64,000 nt of DNA, taken from contig PLGG01000062.1 in NCBI GenBank assembly GCA_003138515.1, positions 47,765 to 111,764 of the forward strand, read 5' to 3'. This document shows, piece after piece, positions 18,114 to 42,622 of the stretch. Within the stretch, counting starts at the first letter, position 1. Every line of letters begins with the position of its first letter. Both the position numbers and the translations under genes were made by a program. The notes under the pieces were generated by a model, which did no database searches, was not told the DNA's origin, and saw only the letters and a program-made list of their open reading frames with translations. Source of the DNA: Acidobacteriaceae bacterium. Lineage in GTDB: Bacteria; Acidobacteriota; Terriglobia; Terriglobales; Acidobacteriaceae.

Positions 18114-18190
18114 GGGCGGTTAGCTCAGTTGGTTAGAGCGCCTGCCTTACAAGCAGGAAGTCGGGGGTTCGAGTCCCTCACTGCCCACCA
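18114..18190 (+). tRNA. tRNA-Val(TAC), 3' CCA encoded
   Basis: Acceptor gggcggt/actgccc, anticodon arm CCTGC-CTTACAA-GCAGG (TAC), T arm GGGGG-TTCGAGT-CCCTC, CCA at 18188-18190. Confidence 0.95.
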
Positions 18191-18339
18191 AGAACATGTT
18201 TTATGACGTCCAAGGCTGTCCAGTTTTCCACAAATAAGTCCAATAAATTCAACGATATGAGGTCCGATACTGTCTAAGGCGGTAGTATGGAAGCCAAGGA
18301 TTTTTGGTGCTATTTCTGGGGTACTCACTGCTACCGTTT

Positions 18340-18548
18340 GGTGGTATTTACAGAAAAAGCCCTTCATCCCCAATATCCATGCGGGTTTTCACTCTTTTGC
18401 GCTCTGGTGGTATTCCACCCCGGGGTTCGATTGACGGCCGGGGGACTCGAACTCCCGTTAGCCTCTTTTTTCGGCGATGGATTCGCAGACCGCCAAACAG
18501 CGGAGGGGAGATTTCTCCTCGCATGGTGGTATTTGAGGAGGTGGTATT
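18340..18548. repeat. Candidate integrase arm-binding repeats (left), GGTGGTATT x4
   Basis: GGTGGTATT at 18340-18348, 18406-18414, 18525-18533, 18540-18548. Confidence 0.55.
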
Positions 18549-19763
18549 TTGCTGACCGACACGGAAATTCGCAAATCCAGACCCACAGACAAGTCGTATC
18601 GGCTGCCCGATGGCAAAGGGCTGTTTCTCTTCATCACCCCGACGGGTGGCAAGCTCTGGCGTTTCAAGTACCGGCATGACGCGAAGCAAAAGCTCATGGC
18701 GCTTGGACAATATCCGGATGTGCCTCTGGTCCTGGCACGGGAGCGCCATGCTGCGGCTCGCGCACTGTTGGCGACAGGCGTTGACCCGATGCAGGTGCGG
18801 AAGACTGAGAAAATCGCGCGCAAGGCTACTTCCGAGAACTCCTTCCGAACCATCGCCGGCCTATGGCTCGAACACTGGCGCGTTGGCAAGAGCGGTCAGC
18901 ACGTTGACTCCACACGAAGGCGCCTAGAGGCAAATGTCTTTCCGCTGTTAGGCGCGCGCCCCATCACGGAGATTGAGGCGCCGGAATTGGTAACGATGGT
19001 CAAGTCAATAGAAGGGAGAGGCGTAGGCGATCTTGCAAAAAGGGCGCTGGAAACGACCGGGCAGATATTTAGGTTCGGCATTGCCCACGGCTATACGAAG
19101 CGCAATCCGGCTGCCGAGATCAAGCCCAGCGACATTCTGCGGCCAACGAAAAAGACCAATCTGGCCCGTATCGATGTGAAAGAACTGCCCGCCCTGCTTC
19201 GGGCCATCGAGGTTTATCAGGGTACGCATATTACCCGGCTGGCCATGAAGCTGCTCGCCTTGACGTTTGTTCGTACCACCGAACTGATAGGCGCGCGCTG
19301 GGAAGAATTCGATCTTGAGGCGCGCCGGTGGAATATCCCTGCATGGCGCATGAAGATGAAAACCCCGCACATTGTCGCACTGTCCTCACAAACAATCGAG
19401 GTGCTGGAATTGGTGCGGTCGTTGGCAAGGAGCGAGGAGTTCCTCTTCCCTGGTGACCGCAATCCTGATAAGCCGATGAGCAACAACACAATTTTGCTCG
19501 CGTTGAAGCGCATGGGTTACCAAGGCCGCATGACCGGCCACGGCTTCCGAGGTTTGGCGTCCACCATCCTGCACGAGCAAGGTTATGCGCATGAGCACAT
19601 CGAATTGCAACTTGCCCATGCCCCGCGCAATGCCGTTAGCGCTGCCTACAATCATGCACTCTACCTGGAGCCACGCGCCAAGATGATGCAGGACTGGGCT
19701 GACTTTCTGGAGCATGCACAGCGCAGAGGCAAGGTACTGCCCTTCCCTGGAACAGCGGCATAG
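18549..19763 (+). CDS. P4-type tyrosine integrase (DUF4102 N-terminal domain)
   Basis: MLTDTEIRKSRPTDKSYRLPDGKGLFLFITPTGGKLWRFKYRHDAKQKLMALGQYPDVPLVLAR; catalytic region MTGHGFRGLASTILHEQG...QLAHAPRNAVSAAYNHALYLEPRAKMMQ. Confidence 0.95.
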   Translation: MLTDTEIRKSRPTDKSYRLPDGKGLFLFITPTGGKLWRFKYRHDAKQKLMALGQYPDVPLVLARERHAAARALLATGVDPMQVRKTEKIARKATSENSFRTIAGLWLEHWRVGKSGQHVDSTRRRLEANVFPLLGARPITEIEAPELVTMVKSIEGRGVGDLAKRALETTGQIFRFGIAHGYTKRNPAAEIKPSDILRPTKKTNLARIDVKELPALLRAIEVYQGTHITRLAMKLLALTFVRTTELIGARWEEFDLEARRWNIPAWRMKMKTPHIVALSSQTIEVLELVRSLARSEEFLFPGDRNPDKPMSNNTILLALKRMGYQGRMTGHGFRGLASTILHEQGYAHEHIELQLAHAPRNAVSAAYNHALYLEPRAKMMQDWADFLEHAQRRGKVLPFPGTAA

Positions 19764-19852
19764 CCATTCGGTCAACTCGGCCGGCAGAGAATCAGGCCAT
19801 GCCCCGCAATCCAATCCCAGACGGATGCGAAGGCGGAATCCCGCTCCGGGCC

Positions 19853-20083
19853 TCATCTTGACGACAACGGATTCACGCCAGTGCGTCGCCCCCTGACTTC
19901 TCGGCTGACCTCTATCTGGCGGGCAATCCACTCCTCAATCTCTGCTTCAATCCAGCCGACAGCTCTGGCCCCGAGCGACACTGGCGTTGGGAACCTTCCT
20001 TCGGTAACGCGCAGATAGACGGTGCTGCGTGACAATCCGGTGCGATCCAATACGACTGGCAGTCTCAGAATCTTTCTCGGCAT
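19853..20083 (-). CDS. AlpA-family transcriptional regulator
   Basis: MPRKILRLPVVLDRTGLSRSTVYLRVTEGRFPTPVSLGARAVGWIEAEIEEWIARQI. Confidence 0.88.
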   Translation of the reverse strand: MPRKILRLPVVLDRTGLSRSTVYLRVTEGRFPTPVSLGARAVGWIEAEIEEWIARQIEVSREVRGRRTGVNPLSSR

Positions 20084-20374
20084 CCCATTACCTCATTGGT
20101 TGAGTTGCATTTGAATTACGTGCGGTTTTACCAAGCCCACGGAGCAAAGTAGCTGCCGAATTTGTCTGCAAACCCGCCGTAGCCAACTTCGTTTCCCTCG
20201 CGCTCTTGTCTGACTTTTCTCCAGGATGCACTGCACGGTTATGTTCTCTTTTATGAACCAACCTCACAGACATCCCGCCAAAAACGTTTGCGGGTCGTTG
20301 CGCGGCATGGTCATCAATGCACCCCTTTCTTACAGCGGTACGTCCGGTTTCATTGGCAAGCGACTGCGAGCTTG

Positions 20375-20705
20375 CTAACCAGGGGGCGAAGGCTGTGTTC
20401 TCCCTTTACGAACCTCGATTGCCGACACCTCTTCCGCTTCCCGATTCAGTTTCTTCATGTAGCCAGACAATGCTGTTGCGGTGATTCTCAAGCCGTTTTC
20501 CTCAAAAAGACCGACCAGCATCTTGAGCAGTATCCCCGTTTCCGAAGCTCTGACAGTTGAGGGAATACCGCCCGTACAATCCCGCCCATCCTGTACGAAG
20601 CGGGTTGCGACGCAGGTTCGTTTGCCTTTCCTTGAGGAACGCACGAAACTCCTCGATATTGTGCGACGAGAGTACTTGCGTCCTGCGACGAGCCTCATTC
20701 TCCAT
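20375..20705 (-). pseudogene. Possible frameshifted small ORF
   Basis: MENEARRRTQVLSSHNIEEFRAFLKERQTNLRR (ORF 20502-20705) and ETGILLKMLVGLFEENGLRITATALSGYMKKLNREAEEV (ORF ending 20375) overlap in different frames on the same strand and look like two halves of one protein. Confidence 0.35.
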
Positions 20706-20846
20706 AAAACGAAATTAAACCACGTTGACGTGTCTGCTGTCAAATATGTATTATTGTGTTGGTGGAGATGGAAAAGCTGGTAAGCGTGAAGGCAAGGTAG
20801 GCGCTGGATATACCGAAACTCCCTGCGGTCGTTTTGGCATATCCAC

Positions 20847-20912
20847 AGGCCCCAACCCAATCCGCTTCGCTACTCGGGTTTGGGCCTGCGCACCTTGCTC
20901 AGGGCTTCGCCC
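20847..20912. other. Candidate oriT: two inverted repeats upstream of mobC/relaxase
   Basis: AGGCCCCAACCC(20847-20858)/GGGTTTGGGCCT(20876-20887), 12-bp arms with one mismatch and 17-nt loop; GGGC-TTC-GCCC at 20902-20912. Confidence 0.45.
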
Positions 20913-20935
20913 CGAGACCCCACAGGAGCACCGAA

Positions 20936-21262
20936 ATGGCAACGCCAAAGCAGACGGAACATCGCCGAGGGTTGCTCATCAAACTCTTGTCCCAAAAGAA
21001 GGAAATCATTCGCCAACAAGCTCATCTCGCCGGCCTAACGGTCAGCGAATACATTCGTAAATGCGCTCTGAACAGACCAATACGTTCCCGAGTAAGCCGG
21101 GAAGTCGCCGCTGAACTCAGCAAGCTGTTTGGACTGCAAAAGCATCTTCTGATGGAGATCAAGAACCTTCCCAACGAAGAAGAACTGCGCCGTGAACTCA
21201 ACTCGGTGCTATCGGAACTGCACACGGCGCTAGCCACGTTCAACAAGAAAACCGCGGAGTAA
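20936..21262 (+). CDS. MobC-like relaxosome accessory protein
   Basis: QKKEIIRQQAHLAGLTVSEYIRKCALNRPI RHH/MobC-like, directly precedes relaxase. Confidence 0.75.
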   Translation: MATPKQTEHRRGLLIKLLSQKKEIIRQQAHLAGLTVSEYIRKCALNRPIRSRVSREVAAELSKLFGLQKHLLMEIKNLPNEEELRRELNSVLSELHTALATFNKKTAE

Positions 21263-21264
21263 GC

Positions 21265-23394
21265 ATGACCGCCAAAGTTCAACCCGCTCGGCAAAGCTCC
21301 GGCAGCTTCAAGCGACTACTCAAGTACCTAACAGAGGAACGCGATGCCGATACAGGGAAACCTATTTTGCGAGGAGACGTTGTAGTGTCGGACAACCTTG
21401 CAGGGTTGGACACTGTGGCAGTTCAGATGGAGGGGATTGCCTTTCTGAACCCTCGCTGCAAGGATGCGCTTTGTCATTATGAACTGTCCTGGCCTCCAGG
21501 AGAACGTCCCACTCGCCCACAATGGATCGACTGCGCGACGCACACGTTGAAAGCACTTGGATACCGAGACCATCAATTCATGCTTGTCGCGCACGACGAC
21601 AGGAAGCACTTTCACATCCACATCATGGTAAACAAGGTCCATCCCGAGACCTTCAAAGCGCATACACCTTATCGGAACTGGTTGACGCTTGATGCCGCAA
21701 TGCGCGTCCTCGAAGCGAAATATGGCTGGACACACACGGCGGGTCCGACACGTTGGGATGAGCAATCGAAACAGGCAGTACGCACATCACGTTCCGAGCG
21801 CAATGCGCTTCGGTCTGCGCGACAACTGCCGACCGGTGCGGCGGCAAAGTATGAGCATTATCACGATAAGGAATCACTGCAAACCTATATACGCCGGGAA
21901 ATGGCCCCTCGTGTACGACAACTTCTCATCCGGGGCAATGTGACATGGGACGATCTCCACATCCTTTTGTCGAAAGCTCATCTCCGGCTTGAGAAGGGGG
22001 AATCGGGCGGATACACAGTCCTTGCCACTGACCACAACATCCGCGTGAAAGCATCCGACGTATTCCGCAACAACTTCGCTGGAAAGGTCAAACGTCAGGC
22101 GACGGAAACCGCTCTTGGCCCGTGGGCACCGGCCTCAACATACATTCAAACCTCCGCGCCACATCCGGCACAACATAGCGAACGTAACGTCACCCTGAGA
22201 GAGGAACGTAAGGCGCAACGACGCCAGGACCGCGATGCCTTGATGGCCGAATATAACCAGTATCGCAATCGGCAACGGGAGGTGTGCAGGGGCATCACCG
22301 CCGATGGGCGTAAGGACAGTAAAAACCTGCTTGAGGTTTTGCGGCAACAGAAGAAAGAGATTCGCGCATCCGCGTTGTCATGGCCGGACAAGAAAGTTCT
22401 GCTCTCCCAGGCTGCGGCCCATTCCGTCCTCGAAGTGCATTCCCTGAAGCTATCCATTCAAAAGCGTCGGCAGGAGGCATTTCCGAAGAATCTCCGCACA
22501 TGGGTAGCGGACAGGGCCAACGAGGGAGATGCGCGGGCGGCCGCGCAACTTCGAGGATGGCGCTATGCGGATCAACGAAATCAGCGCCGGCTCGATGCAA
22601 CCCTGGAACCAAGCGCACTGCATATCGGGCCGCCGCCCGATTGTGACAGCGGCACCGACTGGGCCGACTTCGAGCAACAACGGCTTGCGGACCAACAGAA
22701 GCAACAGGCCCTTGCCAACCAGATCGCCGCGACGCGTATCTGGACGATCAACCGGAAAACCGGCGACGTGTCGTACATGCTGAACGGCAGGGTTTCCGTC
22801 ATCGACCGCGGGCGCCTTGTGACCGTACTCAACCAGGACGAAGAGGCAATTGTCTTCGGGTTGGAGATGGCCGTCCAGAAATACGGATCGCGGATCGCAT
22901 GTACTGGAAGCGAAAAGTGGAAGCGGATGGTTACCTGGTGCGCGATCAGGCACGGCATCTTCGCCCAATTCACGGACCCGGAGATGCAAGGCGCCTTCCA
23001 CCAGGAACAACTCCTGGCGCATCCTCTCCAACTCCGAGCTGGGCGACTGCATTCCATCGAAACCAGGCTCAGAACTGAGGGAACCGAGGATTTGATCTTC
23101 ACCGACGAAACGGATGCGAGTCTGCTCCTCTCAAGTCTCCAGCCTGCCGCCCAGTCCCGGCAACTTCTCGAAATCCTGAAAACATCGCAACAGCCAGAGC
23201 CGAAGGCGAATGTAGGTGGCAAGCTGACAATCGCGCTTGTCCGGTCTTCCACGGGCCAACCGGCTTTCAAAGTATCGATTCACGAGGGGAAGCGGCAAGA
23301 GATCATCGACCGGGTTGCTCAACTCCGGCAGACTGCATATCTGGCATCGCGCAACAACTTCAGAATGCCCAGCAACGAACGTGGTGGCAGATAG
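21265..23394 (+). CDS. MobA/TraI-type (MOBP-like) relaxase with LPD7-like C-terminal domain
   Basis: FKRLLKYLTEE..., HxH metal motif (DRKHFHIHIMVNKVHPET), ALGYRDHQFMLVAHDD; C-terminal RVSVIDRGRLVTVLNQDEEAIVFGLEMAVQKYGSRIACTGSEKWKRMV. Confidence 0.88.
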   Translation: MTAKVQPARQSSGSFKRLLKYLTEERDADTGKPILRGDVVVSDNLAGLDTVAVQMEGIAFLNPRCKDALCHYELSWPPGERPTRPQWIDCATHTLKALGYRDHQFMLVAHDDRKHFHIHIMVNKVHPETFKAHTPYRNWLTLDAAMRVLEAKYGWTHTAGPTRWDEQSKQAVRTSRSERNALRSARQLPTGAAAKYEHYHDKESLQTYIRREMAPRVRQLLIRGNVTWDDLHILLSKAHLRLEKGESGGYTVLATDHNIRVKASDVFRNNFAGKVKRQATETALGPWAPASTYIQTSAPHPAQHSERNVTLREERKAQRRQDRDALMAEYNQYRNRQREVCRGITADGRKDSKNLLEVLRQQKKEIRASALSWPDKKVLLSQAAAHSVLEVHSLKLSIQKRRQEAFPKNLRTWVADRANEGDARAAAQLRGWRYADQRNQRRLDATLEPSALHIGPPPDCDSGTDWADFEQQRLADQQKQQALANQIAATRIWTINRKTGDVSYMLNGRVSVIDRGRLVTVLNQDEEAIVFGLEMAVQKYGSRIACTGSEKWKRMVTWCAIRHGIFAQFTDPEMQGAFHQEQLLAHPLQLRAGRLHSIETRLRTEGTEDLIFTDETDASLLLSSLQPAAQSRQLLEILKTSQQPEPKANVGGKLTIALVRSSTGQPAFKVSIHEGKRQEIIDRVAQLRQTAYLASRNNFRMPSNERGGR

Positions 23395-23523: not shown

Positions 23524-23979
23524 CTATGCGAATGTGGATTGGACTGGCGTCTTGAGTTTATAAACGGCTGCGAAGTAGGCCACCATCACGCGAAACGTCT
23601 TGGACTTATTCACGCCGCCAAGAATTTCCCCGCCGACTCTCTCCAGTTCATCCGCAATCTCGTAGGTCAACGCAAACACAAAAGAGGTGTCGATACTTTG
23701 AAATGGAATGTTCAGCCACGGGTTGTTGTAGAACGCAAGGAGTTGCGCCTGCGCGGCTTTGCTCTTGAAATTCATGATGATGTGCTCAGCGAGCGCGTTC
23801 TGTTTCCGGATTTTCAGCACGGCAAAGAGCTGGCTAAAATGTGTCTTGGTGAATTTGGAATCCACCGTAAGCCGGACCTGAATCCGCTTCTCCGCGGGAG
23901 AAACGACTCTGCGCTTCGCTATGGTTGTGGTCTTCATCTGAGGGGCAGTGTCTTCTCCTTGTCGTGCTGTAGTATACAT
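23524..23979 (-). CDS. Hypothetical protein on island
   Basis: Complete 151-aa ORF downstream of relaxase with a coherent composition. Confidence 0.5.
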   Translation of the reverse strand: MYTTARQGEDTAPQMKTTTIAKRRVVSPAEKRIQVRLTVDSKFTKTHFSQLFAVLKIRKQNALAEHIIMNFKSKAAQAQLLAFYNNPWLNIPFQSIDTSFVFALTYEIADELERVGGEILGGVNKSKTFRVMVAYFAAVYKLKTPVQSTFA

Positions 23980-24188
23980 CAGAACTATATGTCAAGAACG
24001 AGAATGCGCCAACCGGTAGGAATCAAAAGAGCTTCCATGAGGGCAATCTCCGGGGGTAGTAGTGGATTCATTGCATGGAGAAGGGCTCGAATGAATCACG
24101 ACAAATCGAACCGTGGTGGAGGAAGAGAAAAGGAGACGGGCGAGGGACTGGGCAGCGCGCTAAACTTGGCATCGCGCGAGAGCATACA

Positions 24189-24214
24189 GATTTGAACCTC
24201 CGACCCCCTGGTCC
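24189..24214 (-). other. tRNA-Pro(CGG)-like remnant (anticodon loop to T loop), candidate vestigial att core
   Basis: Minus-strand ttcgggaccagggggtcggaggttcaaatc reads like the anticodon-to-T-loop part of a tRNA-Pro; the flanks do not continue a tRNA. Confidence 0.5.
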
Positions 24215-24271
24215 CGAAACAGCCACTGATGTGCTAACTTGTTGATTCGTTTAGGTTGGTAGTGCGTCTAG

Positions 24272-24323
24272 TTGGACCCAAATACATGGTTTTCGGCAGC
24301 AATTGGACCCAAGTTGGACCCAA
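24272..24323 (+). repeat. TTGGACCCAA direct repeats x3
   Basis: 24272-24281, 24303-24312, 24314-24323; last two are spaced 11 bp. Confidence 0.85.
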
Positions 24324-25967: not shown

Positions 25968-26936
25968 TCAGAAACATGCGATCGGTTGTTGTTTCCGGAC
26001 TTTACCGGGAAGGCTACGAAGCGCGAGAGTCTTGCTAACTCGGGGAATCAATATCATGCGCAAGTATTCTCGCGTGAGGATCGCGCGCAACCGGACCGCG
26101 ATGGCCGAGTCACAGGGGACCTGCAGGGAGCGGCAGCGGTCGATGGCTGACCTCAGGTCGCGCAGGAATGCCACGCAGGACGGGCAAGCCTCAATATGAC
26201 TGCGCATCTGTTCGCAGGTGAGCGGTTCCACCCTTCCGTCCAGGTATTCGGAAAGATTGCCGAACAGCTCTCTGCATTCATCGGGGCGTTGCCGGCCCTT
26301 GAGTCTGAGCTTCTTGGGCGTCTTTGCCAACACTTGGTTGTTCTTCGTGCGCTTCAATGAGTTATTCAGAACCAGGTTCATCTCCTTGCGCACGCTCAGA
26401 CGTGCACGATGAAGGCGAATCCGGACAGTTCCCTGCTTGAGGTCGAGAATCTGCGCAACCTGCTCGGTCGTTAACTCCTCCATATCATGAAGCACGAGAA
26501 CGATGCGCAGAGGCGCCGGGATGCGAAGAATTGCCTGATGCAACAGTTGGTGCTGCTCGGCATGGAGGAAATTGCCTTCGGGGCTCTCGCCCGCATCCTG
26601 CAGCAATCGTCCCAGCTCAGCCTCATCCGGCATCAATTCATCCAGTGAGAAGGTGTGGGCCGGAGCGTGAGACGGCTTGCGGCGCATGCGCCAGCAGCGG
26701 TTTCTGGTGACGGTATATAGCCAGACAGCAAGTTGCTGCGGCTCCTGGATTTTGGCCAGATGACCGAGCGATCGGGAAAGGACTTCCTGCATCGTGTCTT
26801 CCGCGTCTTCTCGATGCCCGCAGACCTTCATGCTGAAGGAATAGACCGTATTCTGCAGCAGGCCGATCGCCTCTTCGATGGCTTCAGGAGTATTTCGTTG
26901 CAGGAGTTCCGTGGCTCGGATCAGTTCAGGTCGCAT
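25968..26936 (-). CDS. ECF-type sigma factor with fused C-terminal zinc-finger (anti-sigma-like) domain
   Basis: Sigma2 (HREDAEDTMQEVLSRSLGHL...AVWLYTVTRNRCWRMRR), sigma4 (IPAPLRIVLVLHDMEELTTEQVAQILDLKQGTVRIRLHRAR), C-terminal CRELFGNLSEYLDGRVEPLTCEQMRSHIEACPSC (HxxxCxxC). Confidence 0.88.
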   Translation of the reverse strand: MRPELIRATELLQRNTPEAIEEAIGLLQNTVYSFSMKVCGHREDAEDTMQEVLSRSLGHLAKIQEPQQLAVWLYTVTRNRCWRMRRKPSHAPAHTFSLDELMPDEAELGRLLQDAGESPEGNFLHAEQHQLLHQAILRIPAPLRIVLVLHDMEELTTEQVAQILDLKQGTVRIRLHRARLSVRKEMNLVLNNSLKRTKNNQVLAKTPKKLRLKGRQRPDECRELFGNLSEYLDGRVEPLTCEQMRSHIEACPSCVAFLRDLRSAIDRCRSLQVPCDSAIAVRLRAILTREYLRMILIPRVSKTLALRSLPGKVRKQQPIACF

Positions 26937-27033: not shown

Positions 27034-27303
27034 TCACTTCGGGCAGTGAGCCCCGGCATTGTCCACTCTCAAAGACGACTCAATCATCTTGAGACAGATC
27101 GGAGAGATCTTCTTCAGCCATGGCTTCTCGCTTGCGCTTTGCGGCCCCGAGCACAAAGCCATCCATGCTCGCAGGAGTGCCATTGCCAATTCCATCTCGG
27201 CTCCGGGATGCTGCGCTTCCAGCCGAAACATCTGGCGATAAACCTCATCCCGAATCCGTCTGCTTTGAAGACTGGCGCGCATAGCCGGCTCACTACCTCG
27301 CAC
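27034..27303 (-). CDS. Hypothetical protein
   Basis: 89-aa ORF overlapping the end of the DUF2892-like gene, same strand. Confidence 0.4.
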   Translation of the reverse strand: MRGSEPAMRASLQSRRIRDEVYRQMFRLEAQHPGAEMELAMALLRAWMALCSGPQSASEKPWLKKISPICLKMIESSLRVDNAGAHCPK

Positions 27304-27495
27304 CGTAATCGGCGTCTCTCAATCCCATGGCTCGCAGGATAGCCATGCCTGGGCACCAATTGGTAAAGGCCGATTGCAAGAGGTTGAGGCCCACGAAAAC
27401 CGTCAGCCACAGCCAGTAGAGCGAGAAGTAATGAGCAAGGGCAAACGACAGGAGGACCATGACACCCGCCATCAGGCGCAAACCGCGTTCAACCG

Positions 27496-27499
<4 letters not shown>
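27293..27499 (-). CDS. DUF2892-like (YgaP transmembrane) protein
   Basis: MTVERGLRLMAGVMVLLSFALAHYFSLYWLWLTVFVGLNLLQSAFTNWCPGMAILRAMGLRD; start overlaps RND stop. Confidence 0.8.
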
Positions 27500-30660
<3,161 letters not shown>

Positions 30661-30663
<3 letters not shown>

Positions 30664-30757
30664 CGACGCGGAGCTTCACTTGAAGAAAGCGGTTTCGCTG
30701 GCTCCCGATTCGTCCACTGCAAAGGACGCGCGGACAGCACTGCAAGGCTTGGGATAA
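30661..30757 (+). pseudogene. 3' fragment of a TPR-protein gene
   Basis: + frame ANDAELHLKKAVSLAPDSSTAKDARTALQGLG* is TPR-tail-like and begins exactly where RND homology stops. Confidence 0.55.
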
Positions 30758-32418: not shown

Positions 32419-32428
32419 GGGGATCAGT

Positions 32429-33520: not shown

Positions 33521-34848
33521 TGTTGCTGCAATACTTCGGTTTTCAACAGGATCCATTCGGGGCCACTCCTGACCCGCGATGCTTGTATCTCAGCGGGACG
33601 CATCGCGAGGCATTGGCGTCGCTCGAGTACGGCTTCCTGAGTAATCGTGGTTTTACCGCTATCATTGCTCCTCCGGGAATGGGGAAAACGACCTTATTAT
33701 GTCGTTTTCTAGAAAACGCCCGCGGGACTGCACGCACGGTATTCCTCTTCGATATCGATGCCGAGTGTGCGCCGCGTGAGTTTGTCGCTTACATTCTGCG
33801 CGACATCGGCATCACCCCTGCACAGACTAGTTCCGAAATGCACGAACAATTAACTGACGCTCTGGTTAAGGAGAATCGAGCGGGGCGGAAATTCGTGGTC
33901 GTGATTGACGAGGCGCAGAATCTGTCGGATGCCGTGCTGGAAAGAGTTCGCCTGCTCACCAACTTCGAGACATCGCGGGGCAAGCTTATGCAAGTTGTCC
34001 TCTCAGGGCAGCCGCAGTTGTCCGACAGGCTGCTTAAGGATTCGTTGGTCCAGCTTCGACAGCGCATATCGACGATCTGCCGCCTCAAGCCGCTCTCGAC
34101 CGAGGAAACTGTCGCGTACATCGATTACCGGTTGAAAGTGGCGGGCTATGATGGCGAGCCGCTGTTTACAGGCGATGCGCTCAAGCTAATTGCTGAGGCC
34201 GGCGCGGGCACTCCTCGGATCATCAATAATCTGTGCTTTAACGCCTTGTCCATATGCTTCGCGTTGAATAGCAAGCAAGTGGACGCCAGCATGGTCAGTG
34301 AAGCGATCGCAGACCGGCAATTGATTCCGCATTCAGGTGAGGCCGTTGCGCCCACCGGCGAGGTTGCAGCGGAAGCGCGTGGTGAACCTAAACAACGAAA
34401 GCGGACTAAGCGCGTGCTGAAGTTCTGGATTCCAGCCGCCGCGATGCTGCTTGTCCTGTGTGCGTTGGGCGTTGTGTGGTTCAGCGGGTCTTGGGTCCCA
34501 TGGTCACACGCAGCGGCCGAGGACCGGACCTCGGACCTGAAGTCTCGGCCAGAATCTGTCCCTGCGCCTGCTGCGCCAGAAACCGGGGAAACTAGGGCTC
34601 CTGAAACCGCTCCAAACAGTGCGCCATTCGCAATCACGGTCAAACCTGATCAAACACTTCAAGATATCTCTGAGCAATACCTGGGAAGCTTCGATATTCA
34701 GCGCCTACATCAAATCCAGGCGCTCAACCCGAAACTGACCGATCCGGACCACATTGAGGCTGGGCAGAAAATCTGGCTTCCGGGGCCGCCATCTGCACCC
34801 TTAGAAAAGAGCGCGACGCGTCAAACCGGCAAGAGGAGTACTCCATGA
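33520..34848 (+). CDS. ExeA/GspA-like AAA ATPase with TM and C-terminal LysM domain
   Basis: YFGFQQDPFGATPDPRCLYLSGTHREALASLEYGF, Walker A APPGMGKTT, Walker B VVVIDEAQNLS, TM at FWIPAAAMLLVLCALGVVWF, LysM-like VKPDQTLQDISEQYLGSFDIQRLHQIQALNPKLTDPDHIEAGQKIWLPG. Confidence 0.88.
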   Translation: MLLQYFGFQQDPFGATPDPRCLYLSGTHREALASLEYGFLSNRGFTAIIAPPGMGKTTLLCRFLENARGTARTVFLFDIDAECAPREFVAYILRDIGITPAQTSSEMHEQLTDALVKENRAGRKFVVVIDEAQNLSDAVLERVRLLTNFETSRGKLMQVVLSGQPQLSDRLLKDSLVQLRQRISTICRLKPLSTEETVAYIDYRLKVAGYDGEPLFTGDALKLIAEAGAGTPRIINNLCFNALSICFALNSKQVDASMVSEAIADRQLIPHSGEAVAPTGEVAAEARGEPKQRKRTKRVLKFWIPAAAMLLVLCALGVVWFSGSWVPWSHAAAEDRTSDLKSRPESVPAPAAPETGETRAPETAPNSAPFAITVKPDQTLQDISEQYLGSFDIQRLHQIQALNPKLTDPDHIEAGQKIWLPGPPSAPLEKSATRQTGKRSTP

Positions 34849-35048: not shown

Positions 35049-35166
35049 CACTTAAAGTTCTGCGTAAAACGGACTGGCTCCGGCGGAATCTCCAGGCTGG
35101 CGATGAGACGAATCGAGTCCGCAAGGCCGATTCCGCTCCGTTGGGCTGCTTCGCGTGGGTTATCCG

Positions 35167-36537
35167 ATGAAACCCCTTCACGTTCTGCTGGTCACCTATC
35201 ATTTTCCACCGGTCGGTGGCGTAGGCGTGTTGCGCGCCACCAGCCTCGCACGCTATTTCCCCGCCGAAGGAATCCGACTTGACGTGCTGACCGCGCGCAA
35301 CCCATCCGCAGTGGGCTCCGACCCCTCACTCCTCAAGGAGATCCCAGCCGAAGTCACCATTCACCGAAGTGTCACGCTCGATCTTCCTTTTGGCATCAAG
35401 AAGGGAATCAAGAGGCTGATCAGCGGAGCAAAGGCTCCGGCTGGCAAAGCCGCCGTACCTGCCGCCGGCAAGTCGACACTTATCAGGAGAGCTCTAGAGG
35501 AGGTTCTGCTGCCCGACCCACAGGTGACATGGCTTCCGATACTCACGCGCGCCACTCGTCGCCTTGTCAGAAAACGCAGTATTGATCTCGTTCTCATTAC
35601 GGCGCCGCCATTTTCCACCCTCCTCCTCGTGGAGAAACTCCGCAAAGAGTTTCCCGGGTTGGCTATCCTGGTCGACTTCCGTGATGAATGGCTCACGACC
35701 GCCATTGACCTCGTCGGCTTTAGTCGCACTGAGCGCGCCCGAAGGGTCGCTCGCAATACCGAAGCAAGTGCCGTGGCAAACGCCACCGCAGTGGTTGCAG
35801 TTTCTGAGGCAGCGCGCTGCGAGATTCGTTCCCGATATCCGCAGGAACCTGAGAGCAAGTTCCTCCTCATTCCGAACGGATTCGACGCAACCAGGCTGTG
35901 CAGCTCAGCGCCTTCGCCGGAGCCCCGGCTCGGCGGTAGGATCGTCGTCACCCACATCGGTTCGGTCTACGCCTCAACCGAGCCAACAACGCTGGTGCAA
36001 GCCGTGCAATCGCTGCCGCCTGAGGTCAAGTCGCGATTCAAACTCCGCTTTATCGGCCACATCGAGGAGCCGCGCTTCCGCGATTCCTTGCTGCAACTCG
36101 GCGAGATGGTCGAGCTGAAGGGCTTTCTGCCGCAACATGAGGCTCTGGCGGCAATGAACGAGACTGATTACGTCCTTCTGGTCCAGCATGGTCACCTCAA
36201 CGTTGCCGCCAAGTTTTACGATTATGTCGGGGGGGGTAAACCCGTCCTTGCGACCATCCATCCTGAGGGTCCGGAGCGCGGCTTGCTCGAGGAACTGCGT
36301 GCCGGGTGGTGGGCGGGCAGTCGCGACGTTGAAGGCATCCGCCAGCTTTTCCTAGACGCCGCGGCCCGTGGAGATTCGCTATTGACCGAGTTTCAACCGG
36401 ACAAAGAGAAGATCGCGCAATACGAGCGCAAGCCTCTCGCGCAGCGTTACGCCGCGCTCCTGCACTCCATAGCCGGCACACAGCGAGCGGAAAGTTCACA
36501 AGAGTCGCCCGCCCAATTTGCTGGAAAAGGGGAGTAA
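35167..36537 (+). CDS. Glycosyltransferase family 4-like
   Basis: MKPLHVLLVTYHFPPVGGVGVLRATSLARYFPAEGIRLDVLTA...; GT-B fold pattern. Confidence 0.88.
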   Translation: MKPLHVLLVTYHFPPVGGVGVLRATSLARYFPAEGIRLDVLTARNPSAVGSDPSLLKEIPAEVTIHRSVTLDLPFGIKKGIKRLISGAKAPAGKAAVPAAGKSTLIRRALEEVLLPDPQVTWLPILTRATRRLVRKRSIDLVLITAPPFSTLLLVEKLRKEFPGLAILVDFRDEWLTTAIDLVGFSRTERARRVARNTEASAVANATAVVAVSEAARCEIRSRYPQEPESKFLLIPNGFDATRLCSSAPSPEPRLGGRIVVTHIGSVYASTEPTTLVQAVQSLPPEVKSRFKLRFIGHIEEPRFRDSLLQLGEMVELKGFLPQHEALAAMNETDYVLLVQHGHLNVAAKFYDYVGGGKPVLATIHPEGPERGLLEELRAGWWAGSRDVEGIRQLFLDAAARGDSLLTEFQPDKEKIAQYERKPLAQRYAALLHSIAGTQRAESSQESPAQFAGKGE

Positions 36538-36539
36538 AC

Positions 36540-37709
36540 GTGCTCAAGATCGCGGTCGTCACCCGATACTTTCCCAGCTCGGCGGACCCTTGGCAGGGCC
36601 GGTCTGCCTATCAGACGCTGCGTGTCCTGGCTCGCGAGGCCGATGTGCAGGTCTTTTACCCCAACGCCAAGTACCCATCCTGGCTCAAGCCACGGAGCCG
36701 GATTTACGACAAACTCGACGCTTCCTATCGCCCGCTTGATGTGAAGGTGAACTACTACGATTTTCCTGCTCTGCCGCTGATCTCCCGGCCGCTGAATGGA
36801 TGGATGGCTGCCCGTGTGCTCCTGCCTCATATCCGCAACTTTGCGCCCGATATCATTTTCAGCTTCTTTCTTTACCCGGAAAGTTATGCCGCTCTCAAAA
36901 TCGGTAAAGTCCTCGCTGTTCCGGTCGTGGCCAGGAGCATGGGCTCCGATATCAACAGGATCGGCGATCCCATTTCCGCCTTGCACTCGCGCACTGTTTT
37001 GCGGGAGGCAGATTTTCTGGTCACGGTGAGTACCGACCTGCGTAGGAAAGCACTGGCCATGGGCGCCTTGCCGGAGAGGACCCGCACGATTGTCAATGGC
37101 TGCGATCTCGATGTCTTCCATGTCATGGACCGACTTGTGGCCAGGCAAAAGTTGCGCATCGATCCGGCAGCGGAGGCCGTCGTTTATATCGGGCGCATGG
37201 ACGTCAAGAAAGGTCTACGTGAATTGGTCGAAGCGGCTGTGGCGCTGCATCCCCAGCGGCCTGGCCTGCGGGTGTACCTGGTCGGCGAAGGCCCGGACAG
37301 GACAATTATCCAACGCGCAATTGATACGAAAAATGCAGCCGGATACGTTTATGCGCTGCCCGGTTGTCCATTCGACGAGGTTGCAGTCTGGATGGCGGCA
37401 GCCGATGTGGTCACCTTGCCGAGTTATATGGAAGGTTGTCCCAATGTCATTCTGGAGGCGCTCGCTTCCGGCCGCCCTGTCGTGGCTACAAACGTCGGTG
37501 GCATCCCCGAGATCATGAGCGGAGAGTGCGGACAATTGGTCCCCCCTCGAGACTTCATGGCGTTGGCGCAAGGCCTGGCATCGGTCCTCGACAGAACGTG
37601 GGACTCCGCCGCCATCTCCGCGCAATGGGGCCGAAGCTGGGAAGCCGTCGAGAAAGAGTTGCTTTCCATATTCGAATCCCTTGTGCCAGCCACCACGATA
37701 AGTAAGTAA
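36540..37709 (+). CDS. Glycosyltransferase family 4
   Basis: TRTIVNGCDLDVF...VYIGRMDVKKGLRELVEA...PSYMEGCPNVILEALASGRPVVATNVGGIPEI. Confidence 0.93.
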   Translation: MLKIAVVTRYFPSSADPWQGRSAYQTLRVLAREADVQVFYPNAKYPSWLKPRSRIYDKLDASYRPLDVKVNYYDFPALPLISRPLNGWMAARVLLPHIRNFAPDIIFSFFLYPESYAALKIGKVLAVPVVARSMGSDINRIGDPISALHSRTVLREADFLVTVSTDLRRKALAMGALPERTRTIVNGCDLDVFHVMDRLVARQKLRIDPAAEAVVYIGRMDVKKGLRELVEAAVALHPQRPGLRVYLVGEGPDRTIIQRAIDTKNAAGYVYALPGCPFDEVAVWMAAADVVTLPSYMEGCPNVILEALASGRPVVATNVGGIPEIMSGECGQLVPPRDFMALAQGLASVLDRTWDSAAISAQWGRSWEAVEKELLSIFESLVPATTISK

Positions 37710-37802: not shown

Positions 37803-37860
37803 GAGTGGATGACCAAGGGCAGCTATGCCCCCATCGATCCAACCGATCGTGGAGACTTCC

Positions 37861-38418
37861 GTGAAGACAATGACCCGCACCATCTTGTCCGCCATCGTCC
37901 TTGCAGGTCTGGCTGTTGCAACGCCGGCGTTCGCCACCGGCTTTGACGTCAACTTTGTGATCACAATCGATAGCGGTCCTGACGCTGGTACCTACACGTT
38001 TTCGCTGCCGGACTCCCCGACCGTGAACTCCACCGGAAGCGACGATTTCACTGTCGCAAACGTTGAGATCTCGAAAAACGGAGGCGCAGCCGTATCAGAA
38101 ACCGTATTCTTTACTGAAGATCAACATCCACCGGGGTATGGAGACGGCGGAGTCGCCGTGTTCAGCGGTGGCCCGTATATTTTTAACCTCGTGAACCCCA
38201 ACCAAATAGGGTACTCTGCATTGTTCACCGGCAGCCTCACCGACCCCAGTTTCGTGGGTGGCGTTTATGACGTTGAAGATGACGGTAATACTGCAGACAA
38301 GGGCACCGTCACTATCTATACGCCTGAGCCAAGAACCCTTGTGCTGTTTGGAATGGGGCTGCTTTGCCTGGCGGGCGCGATGCGGCGCAAACTGCCTGCC
38401 TTGAGGCGAGGTGCGTAA
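37861..38418 (+). CDS. PEP-CTERM sorting-domain protein
   Basis: Signal peptide MTRTILSAIVLAGLAVATPAFA; C-terminal TPEPRTLVLFGMGLLCLAGAMRRKLPALRRGA (PEP motif, TM, basic tail). GTG 37861 preferred, with GGAG upstream. Confidence 0.88.
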   Translation: MKTMTRTILSAIVLAGLAVATPAFATGFDVNFVITIDSGPDAGTYTFSLPDSPTVNSTGSDDFTVANVEISKNGGAAVSETVFFTEDQHPPGYGDGGVAVFSGGPYIFNLVNPNQIGYSALFTGSLTDPSFVGGVYDVEDDGNTADKGTVTIYTPEPRTLVLFGMGLLCLAGAMRRKLPALRRGA

Positions 38419-38548: not shown

Positions 38549-39592
38549 CTACTGAATATCCGAGGCCATTGACTTCAGAGGACCGGCCGGAAGCTCGCGG
38601 ACGTTCGACTCTTGCAGTTTATAGAGAAGCGACCTGTAACTAATGTTGAGCCAGTTCGCGGTTTTGCGGCGACTCCAGCCATTGGCCTGCAGCACCTTCA
38701 GGATGATCTCTCTCTCTAAACCTCTCCGTGCTGCCCTCGTAATCTCCTTCAACGAGATGGGATTGGCCAGATCAATTTCGGGAATGATTCCAGTCGGAGC
38801 GGCCGGCATCAGATCCGCTATCAGGCACTCTTCATCGCCGATCAGGACATAGCTGCGGATCATGTTCTCCAACTGGCGGATGTTTCCCGGCCAGGAATAC
38901 CGCTGCATGATACCCGTGATTTCTCGCGAAAGAGGCTTCGGCTCGAGGCGATAAGATTTCGAATACATATCGAGGAAGTAGTCGATCAAAATGGGCAAAT
39001 CGGCCGCCCGTTGACGCAGCGGCGGAAGATCGATGGTTACAGCATTGATGCGGAAGAAGAAATCCAGCCGGAAGTTTCCATCCTCGGCCTGATGCCGAAG
39101 ATTCTCCTTGGCTGCGCAAACAAGCCGAGCATCGACTCTTCGCGATTCCTGGGCTCCCACGCGAGTAAATGTCCCATCCTGGAGAACCTGCAACAGCTTT
39201 GCCTGAATCGACGCATCCAGGCTGCCGACTTCATCGAGAAACATGGTTCCCATATGCGCCAGTTCCATACGGCCGCGCTTGGTGGAATACGCCCCGGTGA
39301 AGGCGCCTTTTTCATACCCGAACAGTTCCGACTCGATCAGAGAGGAGGGGATTGCGGGACAGGTCACCTTGACCCAGGCACACTTTGAACGATTGGAACG
39401 CGCATGCAGCAACTTGGCGAAGACTTCTTTGCCTGTCCCGCTCTCACCCTGCAGGAGAACCGGGACCGTCGTTTCCGCAACATGCTCCAGCTTCCCGCGC
39501 GCGGCAGCCATCATGGAAGATCGTCCGAAGATCACATCCATCGGCGGGAGATTACGAAGATCGACAAACTCGGTGGCGCGTGCCAGGGGCAT
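38549..39592 (-). CDS. Sigma54-dependent activator (AAA + Fis-type HTH, no receiver domain)
   Basis: GESGTGKEVFAKLLH, ELFGYEKGAFTGAY, C-terminal ILKVLQANGWSRRKTANWLNISYRSLLYKLQE; only ~17 aa before the AAA domain. Confidence 0.93.
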   Translation of the reverse strand: MPLARATEFVDLRNLPPMDVIFGRSSMMAAARGKLEHVAETTVPVLLQGESGTGKEVFAKLLHARSNRSKCAWVKVTCPAIPSSLIESELFGYEKGAFTGAYSTKRGRMELAHMGTMFLDEVGSLDASIQAKLLQVLQDGTFTRVGAQESRRVDARLVCAAKENLRHQAEDGNFRLDFFFRINAVTIDLPPLRQRAADLPILIDYFLDMYSKSYRLEPKPLSREITGIMQRYSWPGNIRQLENMIRSYVLIGDEECLIADLMPAAPTGIIPEIDLANPISLKEITRAARRGLEREIILKVLQANGWSRRKTANWLNISYRSLLYKLQESNVRELPAGPLKSMASDIQ

Positions 39593-39708: not shown

Positions 39709-39830
39709 GTAGCCAATCGAAGCCTCCGAACGGGTTACTTCAAGGAATACGGCTTACCGCGTGGTGCAAGGATTTGCACAAGTGGGCATAGATTTACCAC
39801 TTCTGGTGGCGAGATTAATGCCACTTCCCT
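39709..39830 (+). pseudogene. Degenerate transposase catalytic-domain fragment
   Basis: Frame NRSLRTGYFKEYGLPRGARICTSGHRFTTSG resembles the EYGLPRAIRTDNG...F region of rve-type transposases. Confidence 0.4.
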
Positions 39831-40443
39831 GAAAGAAATGGCCCAGATGGATGGGGATGAGCCGCGGCCGCTGCCCAGACTTGATTCTCACCCATAGTAT
39901 CGATTCATCCACAAATTAGCCCGCGTTGGACAAGGAGGACCGCTTGGTCCAACCTGTTCGGCGCGGGTTTTCTCTTTTACTGGGTCGATATCGACCATTT
40001 GCTCGTGCTGTTCGGTCTGACCCGTGACGAATTCACCGACGCGGGACGGCCGCTGCCCGATGTGCAGCACATTCATCCCAGGGCGCTGGAACCGAACCTC
40101 CCACGGACTCTGTACGCGCCGGAGCAAAAATAGACCACGTGACGCCGCTTCCAGCGGCACCTGAATCCGACCAGTAAACGATGCATTACAAGATGCATGT
40201 GCACGTCCAGCATGCAGTCGGTACCGAAAACGCCGATTGCGCCTATAGCGCGTCCGGATATCCAGAGGATCGATCTATCTATAGCCGGCGATCTTGCTGC
40301 TGAGCTTTCCCGAAATAGGGTTGATAGATTTAGCTCTTCGCGGACACTTTTCTCATCGACCTCGGGTCTTTGTGACCTGCCCCCGGAAAACTCTACCAGT
40401 TGAAGCTGGAGTTCTCTCGTAATCTAAGCGGGAGGACGGAGCG

Positions 40444-40725
40444 ATGAAGAAGAGCCGGTATACCGAAGAGCAGATCATCGGGATCTTGAAGCAGCACGAG
40501 GCTGGGGTGAAAACGGCGGATCTGTGCCGTGAGCACGGGATCAGCGCGGCGACGTTCTATGGCTGGAAGTCGAAGTTTGGCGGCATGGAAGTGAGCGAGG
40601 CGCAGCGGCTGAAGGCGATGGAGGACGAGAACCGCCGGTTGAAGCTGTTGGTGGCGGAGCTGAGCCTGCATGGCGAGGCGCTGAAGGCAGTGATCCGAAA
40701 AAACGGGTGGAGCTTGCCGGTCTAA
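40444..40725 (+). CDS. IS3-family transposase OrfA
   Basis: MKKSRYTEEQIIGILKQHEAGVKTADLCREHGISAATFYGWKSKFGGM. Confidence 0.95.
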   Translation: MKKSRYTEEQIIGILKQHEAGVKTADLCREHGISAATFYGWKSKFGGMEVSEAQRLKAMEDENRRLKLLVAELSLHGEALKAVIRKNGWSLPV

Positions 40726-41633
40726 GAGAAGAGGTGGCGTTCGTCTCGGTCGAGTTCCGGCTGAGCGAACGCACGGCCTGCAAGCTGCTGGGCGTGGAGC
40801 GGTCGAGCTATCGGTATGAGCCTCGCCCGGACCGCAACATCGAACTACGCGAGGCGCTGGTGAAGCTGGCTCGGCAGAAGCCGCGCTACGGCTATCGAAG
40901 GCTGCATGTCTTGCTCCAACGTAGAGGCCACGAGGTCAACGTGAAGCGTGTTTACCGGCTGTATTCGGAAGAACGGCTGGCGGTTCGGCGCAGGAAGCGC
41001 AAGCATCTGGTGCGGGATCGTGCCCTGGCGCCCCGTCTGATCCGTCCTAACCAGGAGTGGGCGATGGACTTCATCGTGGATGGTCTGGCAACCGGGAGGA
41101 TGGTGCGGATCCTCAGCGTGGTGGATGCGTACACGCGTGAGTGCCTGGCGCTTGAGGCCGACACCAGCCTGGGCAGTGGGCGCGTGACGCGTGTGCTTGA
41201 GAGGCTGATCGAAGAGCGTGGCCGGCCGGAGAACGTGCGCTCGGACAACGGCCCAGAGTTCACCTCGCGGCGCATGCTGGGCTGGGCGGAAGACTGGAAG
41301 GTTGGGCTGGTGCACATCCAGCCGGGAAGGCCGATGCAGAATGGCCATGTCGAGAGCCTCCACGGAAGGTTGCGCGACGAGTGTCTCAACGCGCACTGGT
41401 TCCGCACGCTGAACGATGTAAGGAGTACCTTGGCAAGCTGGCGGCAGGAGTACAACTGCGAGCGTCCGCACAGCTCGCTCGACTACAGAACGCCGGAGGA
41501 GTTCCGGCAGAGAACAGGCTATGCAGATGTGGAAAGCACAGAACGCTTCCCACATCTGCACAGCCTCGACGGCGGCTGCGAGGTAATCTCGAAGCTAAAC
41601 CAAAACCGGGAAACTCTGGTTATCAATGGTTGA
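40707..41633 (+). CDS. IS3-family transposase OrfB (rve/DDE domain)
   Basis: WAMDFIVDGLATGRMVRILSVVDAYTRECLALEAD...VRSDNGPEFTSRRML...GRPMQNGHVESLHGRLRDECLN. Confidence 0.95.
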   Translation: MELAGLREEVAFVSVEFRLSERTACKLLGVERSSYRYEPRPDRNIELREALVKLARQKPRYGYRRLHVLLQRRGHEVNVKRVYRLYSEERLAVRRRKRKHLVRDRALAPRLIRPNQEWAMDFIVDGLATGRMVRILSVVDAYTRECLALEADTSLGSGRVTRVLERLIEERGRPENVRSDNGPEFTSRRMLGWAEDWKVGLVHIQPGRPMQNGHVESLHGRLRDECLNAHWFRTLNDVRSTLASWRQEYNCERPHSSLDYRTPEEFRQRTGYADVESTERFPHLHSLDGGCEVISKLNQNRETLVING

Positions 41634-41839
41634 GAAATCGGGGGCAGGTCATTTGCTGGTTCGGTTTCGTAGAGCGTGGCCGTATTCCTTGAAGTAACCC
41701 GTTCGGAGGCTTCGATTGGCTACGCAGAAGCGACACGCACAACTATTATAGAAACGTCTCGGAGACATGCCACCTCTAATTGCGTTAGCCTCCTTTTAGT
41801 GATTGAAGCTTCGCCGCCAATCTCAACTATGCGAAAGGT

Positions 41840-42373
41840 TCAAACAGGCTCTACCAACTCCGGCCTGTTATTCCTGACATTCCCGACAGCACGGCTCACC
41901 TTCCACGCCTTCATTTCCTCTGCCGAGAACGGTCTGAGCAAATCAACGGGCAAATGCGAAGGCTCTGCCAGAGCCATCCACCGTTCGTAATCCTTCCGTG
42001 CCACGATCACCGGCATTCGGCTGTGAATGGGCTTCAAGAGTTCATTCGGGTCTGTGGTCAATATCGTTTACGTCTGTAGCTCCTGACCGGTGGCTTTGTC
42101 CTTCCATGTGTCCCATAGACCGGCGAACGCGAACAATTCACCGCCCTTCAAGCTGATGGCATACGGTTGCTTCGTCTTCTCGTCAATCTTCTTCCATTCG
42201 TAAAACCAATCAGCAGGTACGAGGCAACGACGACGCTTCCATGGTTCTCGATACGCAGGACTCGTCGCGACCGTCTCAGCTTTGGCGTTGATCGTATTGA
42301 ATGCCGCTGTACCATCTTTCGACCAGAAGGGCACAAGCCCCCATCGCGCCTGGTTCCGAACGCCGCGCTTCAT
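41840..42373 (-). pseudogene. SRAP/HMCES-family (YedK-like) protein, truncated and interrupted
   Basis: RWGLVPFWSKD...INAKAETVATSPAYREPWKRRRCLVPADWFYEWKK...FAFAGLWDTWKD...ELQT*TILTTDPNELLKPIHSRMPVI; in-frame TAA at 42068-42070 and no N-terminal MCGR segment. Confidence 0.85.
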
Positions 42374-42533
42374 GAGTCACTTCGAGCGCCAATGAGGCCG
42401 GCCTGCCCCACCATCGTGCGCCGAGGCTCCATTTGTTCGGCGCTATCGAAAATGGCGCCCCCCAGAGTCCATCGGCGATCTGAAAGAAATTCTAGCTCTA
42501 CTGGCGGCTCAAAAGCCCTAAGCGCTGATCTGC

Positions 42534-42554
42534 GGGGGTATATTAGGGGGTACT
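42534..42554. repeat. Candidate integrase arm repeats (right), GGGGGTA x2
   Basis: GGGGGTATATTAGGGGGTACT about 50 bp inside the right att core. Confidence 0.55.
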
Positions 42555-42605
42555 TTACTGACATCGAAAAACATCTCTAAAAGATTCAGTCATTTGCAGG
42601 GAGAC

Positions 42606-42622
42606 TCGAGTCCCTCACTGCC
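42606..42622. repeat. attR: 17-bp duplicate of tRNA-Val 3' end
   Basis: TCGAGTCCCTCACTGCC identical to 18169-18185. Confidence 0.88.

What the first reader, a model, noticed from the sequence alone, without database searches (positions are those of the whole stretch)
18114..42622. 24.4-kb integrative island delimited by a 17-bp duplication of tRNA-Val(TAC)
Seen: intact tRNA-Val at 18114-18190, P4-type integrase 360 bp downstream and pointing inward, and TCGAGTCCCTCACTGCC repeated exactly at 42606-42622. P4-type integrases commonly use tRNA 3' ends (established). The island links a mobilization module with an exopolysaccharide/PEP-CTERM module, a combination I do not recognise as a described element.
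Basis: partly seen in the sequence, partly recalled or inferred. Interest (0 to 1): 0.8.

Follow-up and report, generated by a model that had tools for sequence, protein, structure and literature searches.

The report
Composite mobilizable island in tRNA-Val
A 24.4-kb piece of foreign DNA sits in a valine tRNA gene of a soil/peat acidobacterium; it is a real, precisely bounded, probably hitch-hiking mobile island, but its link between DNA-transfer genes and polysaccharide genes is a patchwork of older elements, with broken joints, rather than one working new system.

Summary
The 17-mer occurs exactly twice in the whole 4.23-Mb genome. A congener (G013) has the empty site hpnK–tRNA-Val–zinc-ribbon–hpnE. 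Five copies of one arm-type site, GGKGGTAYT, lie only at the two ends, four left and one right, against 0.41 expected in the window. An unrelated-cargo island in G003 has the same layout. The tRNA is an integration hot spot; nearly identical integrases (93–97%) enter it in other congeners with other cargo. The element is an integrative mobilizable element: P4-type integrase, AlpA, small regulator (broken here), conserved oriT-like motif, NikA-like protein, MOBP relaxase, no secretion system. This backbone recurs in related elements at other tRNAs. New here: the island is composite. The backbone stops at 24185, where a relic attachment site of a second element lies buried: an inverted tRNA-Pro(CGG) fragment plus three TTGGGTCCAA sites. 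The EPS/PEP-CTERM cargo is a severed half of the genus XrtA locus. It starts inside prsT, abuts a 5'-truncated RND gene, and the genome has no detectable exosortase. attR has lost the tRNA CCA end, as in 6 of 8 related islands, so excision may weaken the tRNA. Ordinary kind, unusually legible history.

The parts
18114..18190 (+). tRNA-Val(TAC), reconstituted target gene; core of attL at 18169-18185
   Evidence: the only copy at full identity in the genome (other G000 match listed is 79% over positions 2-63)
18340..18548 (+). four arm-type sites GGTGGTATT (18340, 18406, 18525, 18540), left arm of the attachment site
   Evidence: 5 in 64 kb versus 0.41 expected, all on one strand, all at island ends; same layout in G003
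18549..19763 (+). P4-type tyrosine integrase, 404 aa
   Evidence: Arm-DNA-bind_3, Phage_int_M, Phage_integrase all above cut-off; HGFR and C-terminal Tyr present
19853..20083 (-). AlpA-type regulator / likely excisionase
   Evidence: PF05930 E 1.8e-20
20375..20720 (-). small conserved regulator-like gene, broken by two frameshifts here, continuous in relatives
20791..20806 (+). candidate oriT motif GGCAAGGTAGGCGCTG, conserved upstream of nikA in independent elements
   Evidence: position and conservation only
20834..21262 (+). NikA/MobC-like mobilization accessory protein
   Evidence: PF21983 E 1.8e-16
21265..23394 (+). MOBP relaxase, TraI/MobA(P) family, HDDRKHFHIHIMVN motif
   Evidence: NF041893 301.6 bits, cut-off 250; motif
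23524..23979 (-). conserved gene of unknown function that travels with the relaxase
   Evidence: 77-88% in several other mobilization modules
24185..24185 (.). end of the shared mobilization backbone
   Evidence: DNA similarity of many homologous elements stops at 24184/24185
24189..24222 (-). relic attachment-site fragment of tRNA-Pro(CGG), positions 29-62
   Evidence: 94% over 34 bp, E 3e-10, to the genome's own tRNA-Pro(CGG)
24272..24323 (-). three TTGGGTCCAA arm-type sites of the second integrase system
   Evidence: 3 versus 0.08 expected; same motif beside the att repeat and integrase at tRNA-Pro(CGG) in own contig C43
24496..25641 (+). unknown protein with probable signal peptide, cargo
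   Evidence: homologues in several genomes, 78% in G035
25968..26936 (-). ECF-type sigma factor with C-terminal zf-HC2 domain
27293..27501 (-). YgaP-like membrane protein following the RND gene
   Evidence: PF11127 E 6e-13
27496..30663 (-). RND efflux permease, truncated at its N terminus, without adaptor or channel genes beside it
   Evidence: PF00873 from profile position 20; frame opens only at 30675
30644..30754 (+). 37-codon remnant of the 3' end of prsT, overlapping the RND junction
   Evidence: 54-68% to PrsT C termini in 7 congener loci; PrsT identified by TIGR02917 above cut-off
30868..32418 (+). flippase-like (Wzx-type) membrane protein
   Evidence: 56-67% homologues next to prsT in congeners; no Pfam or NCBIfam hit; function inferred
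32429..33520 (+). EPS-locus protein of unknown family
   Evidence: 72-86% in congener EPS loci
33519..34848 (+). PEP-CTERM-system-like ATPase with LysM domain
   Evidence: TIGR03015 212.7 bits, below cut-off 324.5
35155..37709 (+). two GT4 glycosyltransferases
   Evidence: collinear pair in G024, G023, G027
37825..38418 (+). PEP-CTERM protein
   Evidence: PF07589 20.8 bits, cut-off 20.7
38549..39592 (-). sigma-54 activator without receiver domain, PrsR-like
   Evidence: PF00158, HTH_8; TIGR02915 265.9 bits, below cut-off
39709..41723 (.). 45-nt perfect inverted repeats around an IS3-type transposase pair (40444-41633)
41840..42376 (-). SRAP (YedK-type) pseudogene with in-frame stop and missing N terminus
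42533..42554 (+). right arm GGGGGTATATTAGGGGGTACTT
   Evidence: matching right arm in G003
42606..42622 (+). attR core; terminal CACCA of the tRNA missing
42620..42706 (+). host DNA that follows tRNA-Val directly in G035
   Evidence: 73% over 92 bp, E 0.001, the only other hit in 1.09 Mb

Best explanation
18169-42622 is an integrated, composite integrative-mobilizable element (IME). Inferred mechanism: the P4-type integrase recombines a ~17-20-bp core at the T-arm/acceptor end of tRNA-Val(TAC) with the same core on the circular element, helped by arm sites at both ends and steered by AlpA. Once excised, the relaxase with the NikA-like protein would nick an oriT just upstream of nikA, so that a conjugation apparatus supplied by another element could transfer it. 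The cargo came later and from elsewhere. A second element that used tRNA-Pro(CGG) was fused onto the end of the mobilization backbone, leaving a buried relic attachment site. A half XrtA/EPS locus was joined to a truncated RND gene, and an IS3-type insertion sits near the right end. Shown by sequence: boundaries, empty site, hot spot, shared backbone, buried att site, truncations. Inferred: excision, mobilization, order of the fusions.
For: Two copies only of the core in the genome; empty site in G013 with conserved flanks. Right flank homologous to DNA directly after tRNA-Val in G035. Arm sites only at the two ends, same layout in G003 with unrelated cargo. Same tRNA occupied by 93-97% identical integrases in G003, G010, G019, with other cargo where readable, and by other recombinases in G017 and G025 with 45-47-bp repeats. 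In the 80 loci, the integrase sits 155-362 bp after a tRNA wherever an upstream tRNA could be assigned. Backbone int-alpA-regulator-nikA-relaxase-unknown gene conserved in L188/L343 and in L277/L346 (tRNA-Ser). Backbone similarity stops at 24184/24185 in many elements. tRNA-Pro(CGG) fragment and arm sites there, with the matching att repeat, arm sites, integrase and mobilization module at tRNA-Pro(CGG) in the same genome. prsT remnant and truncated RND; no exosortase in the genome.
Against: No excised circle or transfer could be tested. The oriT is only a conserved motif. The small regulator and the SRAP gene are broken and attR has lost CACCA, so the element may be resident rather than mobile now. 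Whether the genome holds a helper conjugation system was not searched. Where the tRNA-Pro-derived part ends on the right is unknown. The assembly is a draft of 90 contigs, 97% complete, so an exosortase could lie in a gap.
Confidence: 0.87

Rival explanations
1. A single coherent mobilizable element that carries an EPS/PEP-CTERM module as its selected payload.
For: All genes lie between one pair of att sites; integrase, relaxase and most EPS genes have open frames; the cargo includes its own sigma-54 activator.
Against: Buried tRNA-Pro att relic at the mobilization/cargo joint; EPS part begins inside prsT and abuts a truncated RND gene; no exosortase, export, chain-length or initiating transferase gene in the island; no exosortase in the genome; sister elements with the same backbone carry other cargo.
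Confidence: 0.1
2. Two nested or tandem islands: a small P4-type element, and a second element inserted next to it, rather than one composite that moves as a unit.
For: A second set of att features at 24189-24323; tandem occupation of this tRNA is seen in G003, where a decayed recombinase lies just outside attR.
Against: Only one tRNA-Pro fragment is present, truncated and inverted, and no second integrase; the P4-type right arm is at the far end, so the outer att pair encloses everything.
Confidence: 0.2
3. A fixed genomic scar: the island can no longer excise because attR is damaged and accessory genes have decayed.
For: attR lacks CACCA, apparently by an 8-bp loss between GCC repeats; regulator and SRAP pseudogenes.
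Against: Core repeats are perfect, arm sites intact, integrase, AlpA and relaxase open and with catalytic motifs.
Confidence: 0.35

Closest known systems
tRNA-targeted genomic islands as defined in Islander (PMC4383910)
   Same: Regenerated tRNA gene, displaced 3' fragment, tyrosine integrase next to the intact tRNA; the core lies in the T-stem/acceptor region (their class J). The buried tRNA-Pro relic starts in the anticodon stem (their class A).
   Different: Holds att features of both classes in one island; the displaced fragment stops 5 bases short of the tRNA 3' end.
Integrative and mobilizable elements (IMEs; reviewed in PMC5704250)
   Same: Own integrase and own relaxase, no type IV secretion genes.
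   Different: Acidobacterial backbone (P4-type integrase, AlpA, small regulator, NikA-like, MOBP relaxase, conserved unknown gene); I found no description of it in the papers searched.
P4-type integrase islands of Enterobacteriaceae (from general knowledge: HPI, LEE, PAI I-536; IHF study of PAI I-536: PMC7286903)
   Same: Integrase domain layout, AlpA partner, tRNA 3' end target.
   Different: From memory the HPI repeat reaches the CCA end; here and in 5 of 7 related islands it does not.
MOBP plasmid relaxases TraI/MobA(P) of Xanthomonas and Laribacter plasmids
   Same: Same relaxase family, 35-38% identity.
   Different: All plasmid matches are below 60% identity; here it is chromosomal with an integrase.
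XrtA/PEP-CTERM exopolysaccharide locus of the same genus (L146, L149)
   Same: Flippase-like gene, unknown EPS gene, two glycosyltransferases in the same order; PrsT remnant, ATPase-like, PEP-CTERM protein and sigma-54 activator.
   Different: Lacks exosortase, EpsI, export, chain-length and initiating transferase genes that are present in the congener loci.

Membership tests
tRNA-targeted genomic island | Intact tRNA plus displaced 3' fragment as direct repeat | tested here: met
tRNA-targeted genomic island | Integrase gene inside, near the intact tRNA | tested here: met
tRNA-targeted genomic island | Empty site in a relative | tested here: met
   G013/L083
P4-type integrase element | Arm-DNA-bind_3 + central + catalytic domains, catalytic residues | tested here: met
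P4-type integrase element | AlpA-type excisionase | tested here: met
   PF05930
Satellite phage P4 | Helper-exploiting capsid genes and alpha primase | tested here: not met
   none among the ORFs of 18.2-42.6 kb searched in Pfam
Integrative and mobilizable element | Own relaxase | tested here: met
   NF041893 above cut-off
Integrative and mobilizable element | No conjugation apparatus of its own | tested here: met
   no VirB/Tra family matches among the island ORFs searched
Integrative and mobilizable element | oriT | tested here: inconclusive
   conserved non-coding motif at 20791-20806 in independent elements; the CATCCTGT match at 20587 lies in a gene and was dropped
Integrative and mobilizable element | Excises and is mobilized in trans | not testable with these tools
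   needs cells or raw reads
ICE | Type IV secretion genes | tested here: not met
   none found in the island
XrtA/PEP-CTERM EPS system | Exosortase | tested here: not met
   PF09721: none in island or genome; found in 14 of 24 congeners
XrtA/PEP-CTERM EPS system | PEP-CTERM substrate | tested here: met
   PF07589 just above cut-off

The most novel reading that the evidence does not exclude
Islands of this P4-type integrase family tend to become locked in. The displaced tRNA fragment at attR loses its acceptor/CCA end (6 of 8 islands with a recognisable repeat; breaks at -5, -5, -5, -6, -6, -7 from the tRNA end), through short deletions next to the core where an original sequence can be inferred. 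The element-supplied 3' end is then the only complete one, and excision would damage a tRNA (here the only tRNA-Val(TAC) found), so the host is held to the island without a toxin.
Probability: 0.2. Interest if true: 0.6.

Novelty: new member of a known kind. Interest (0 to 1): 0.42.

Why it matters
It gives a well-bounded IME backbone for Acidobacteriaceae, a family whose conjugation-related elements I found little described in the papers searched. It also shows how such an island gains cargo: by fusing with a second island that carries another integrase's attachment site, and by picking up half of a chromosomal polysaccharide locus. The eroded attR raises a testable question about how tRNA islands become permanent.

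Tried and rejected
CATCCTGT (RP4-like nic) at 20587 as oriT: dropped, because the conserved stretch is a minus-strand gene and such matches are common in the window (11 found, 4.8 expected). A drifted or duplicated right flank: rejected, because it is homologous to DNA after tRNA-Val in G035. 'Excision kills the tRNA': weakened, because ARAGORN still finds a tRNA in the joined flanks of the islands with truncated repeats, up to 3 bases shorter. Defence-system reading of the sigma-54 activator: PADLOC RtcR match covers only the shared AAA+/HTH part, with no CARF domain. An integrase profile first built with some sequences in the wrong strand gave spurious hits and was rebuilt. Literature: no paper with IME + PEP-CTERM. 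Relaxase versus solved structures: no match. In most islands of the family no repeat of at least 12 bp was found within the 10-60 kb read, so the attR statistic rests on 8 cases and favours repeats that stayed long.
Full report
OBSERVATION. The repeat TCGAGTCCCTCACTGCC is exact at 18169-18185, inside tRNA-Val(TAC) 18114-18190, and at 42606-42622; chance expectation is 0.01 with two mismatches allowed. In the whole 4.23-Mb genome it occurs only at these two places. It covers tRNA positions 56-72 and does not extend in either direction. The integrase gene begins 358 bp after the tRNA and points inward.

EMPTY SITE AND FLANKS. In congener G013 (L083) the genes that flank the island here are contiguous: hpnK, tRNA-Val, 145 bp, the zinc-ribbon gene, hpnE, with the outer gene order kept on both sides. 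The DNA just right of the window's attR (42620-42706) matches the DNA that directly follows the tRNA-Val CCA end in congener G035 (73% over 92 bp, the only other hit in 1.09 Mb of related DNA). The right flank is therefore native and the 24.4 kb between is inserted.

ENDS OF THE ELEMENT. The motif GGKGGTAYT occurs five times in 64 kb, all on the + strand: at 18340, 18406, 18525, 18540 and 42546; 0.41 are expected and none of 100 shuffles reaches five. An island in G003 with a 93% identical integrase and unrelated cargo has the same layout: four sites in the first 350 bp and one 57 bp before its own 20-bp attR. These are most simply integrase arm sites; they tie the right end to this integrase independently of the 17-mer.

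HOT SPOT. Integrases 93-97% identical occupy the same hpnK-linked tRNA-Val(TAC) in G003, G010 and G019, with unrelated cargo where it could be read (G003, G010), and a 73% one occupies it in G027. G017 and G025 carry other tyrosine recombinases there, with 45-47-bp repeats that reach the tRNA end. Beyond G003's attR lies a decayed recombinase of an older island. Among 80 related integrases from genome records, the gene lies 155-362 bp after a Val, Ser, Pro, Asp or Arg tRNA wherever an upstream tRNA could be assigned; the rest are at contig edges or without a callable tRNA.

MOBILIZATION BACKBONE. Downstream come AlpA (PF05930), a small gene broken by two frameshifts here, a NikA-like protein, a TraI/MobA(P) relaxase above its curated cut-off with an intact HFHIH motif, and a 151-aa gene of unknown function. 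The same series, with the small gene in one frame, is found in L188/L343 (fen_409) and in L277/L346 at tRNA-Ser(GCT), with other cargo. A 16-bp non-coding motif, GGCAAGGTAGGCGCTG, lies before nikA at 20791-20806, and its 13-base core recurs in independent elements; it is an oriT candidate only. No conjugation apparatus genes were found in the island. The element works like an IME and meets the IME features that can be tested here; transfer itself was not testable.

BURIED SECOND ATTACHMENT SITE. DNA similarity of many homologous backbones stops at 24184/24185. Directly there the window has an inverted 34-bp fragment of tRNA-Pro(CGG) (94% to the genome's own gene, E 3e-10; the only non-Val tRNA fragment of that strength in the window), followed by three copies of TTGGGTCCAA (0.08 expected). 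In contig C43 of the same genome, hslVU - tRNA-Pro(CGG) is followed by a mini-insert, a tRNA-Pro repeat from anticodon to CCA, two TTGGGTCCA sites, a 433-aa tyrosine integrase and a second copy of the same mobilization module, whose relaxase is cut by a contig end and apparently continues on C31. So the joint between mobilization and cargo is the relic of an element that used tRNA-Pro(CGG): the island is composite. The two co-resident mobilization modules offer a route by recombination; this last step is inference.

CARGO. The RND permease lacks its first ~20 residues and has no adaptor gene beside it. It abuts a 37-codon remnant of the end of prsT (30644-30754; 54-68% to PrsT C termini of seven congener loci; PrsT identified by TIGR02917). 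From there the order flippase-like gene, unknown EPS gene, two glycosyltransferases follows the genus XrtA locus. In five congeners an exosortase lies 3.2 kb from the flippase-like gene, on the side that is missing here. The window genome has no detectable exosortase (97% complete), so the PEP-CTERM protein is an orphan here. An IS3-type transposase inside 45-nt perfect inverted repeats and an SRAP pseudogene fill the right end.

attR EROSION. The attR core lacks the terminal CACCA. Against G035 the change is explained by loss of 8 bp between two GCC triplets (CTGCC[CACCAGCC]TTCG). Of eight islands of this integrase family with a recognisable repeat, two keep the CCA end and six break at -5, -5, -5, -6, -6 or -7. 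Joined flanks still give a callable tRNA, up to 3 bases shorter, so excision would weaken rather than abolish the gene. The sample is small and favours long repeats; I treat lock-in as a hypothesis.

VERDICT. The finding is real and precisely bounded. It is a new member of a known kind (P4-type, tRNA-targeted IME), with an unusually clear composite history. The mobilization/EPS combination is accretion rather than a new functional system.

Noticed in passing
G000 contig C43 (L156: 4813-10794) and C31 (L157): A second mobilizable element in the same genome at tRNA-Pro(CGG), with a different tyrosine integrase but the same mobilization module; its relaxase gene is apparently split across two contig ends.
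   Followed up: partly
window 39709-39753 and 41679-41723: 45-nt perfect inverted repeats 1.9 kb apart around an IS3-type transposase, with 690 bp of unexplained DNA before the first transposase gene; the full 2-kb unit is single-copy in the genome.
   Followed up: partly
window 23524-23979: Uncharacterised 151-aa protein without Pfam, NCBIfam or PADLOC match that accompanies the relaxase in several elements; a candidate new mobilization or copy-control protein.
   Followed up: partly
window 25968-26936: ECF-type sigma factor with a zf-HC2 (anti-sigma-like) domain fused at its C terminus.
   Followed up: no
L173 (G027 C2) 7116-9670: Homologues of the two island glycosyltransferases (73-76%) lie about 2 kb beyond bshA at the hpnK-tRNA-Val locus in G027, away from that genome's flippase homologue.
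   Followed up: no
L088:12303-12702: Decayed tyrosine recombinase C terminus just outside attR of the G003 island: trace of an earlier island at the same tRNA.
   Followed up: yes
L165:5818-5839 (G009): A 22-bp tRNA-Val fragment 75 bp after the intact tRNA with no island between: probably an excision scar.
   Followed up: no
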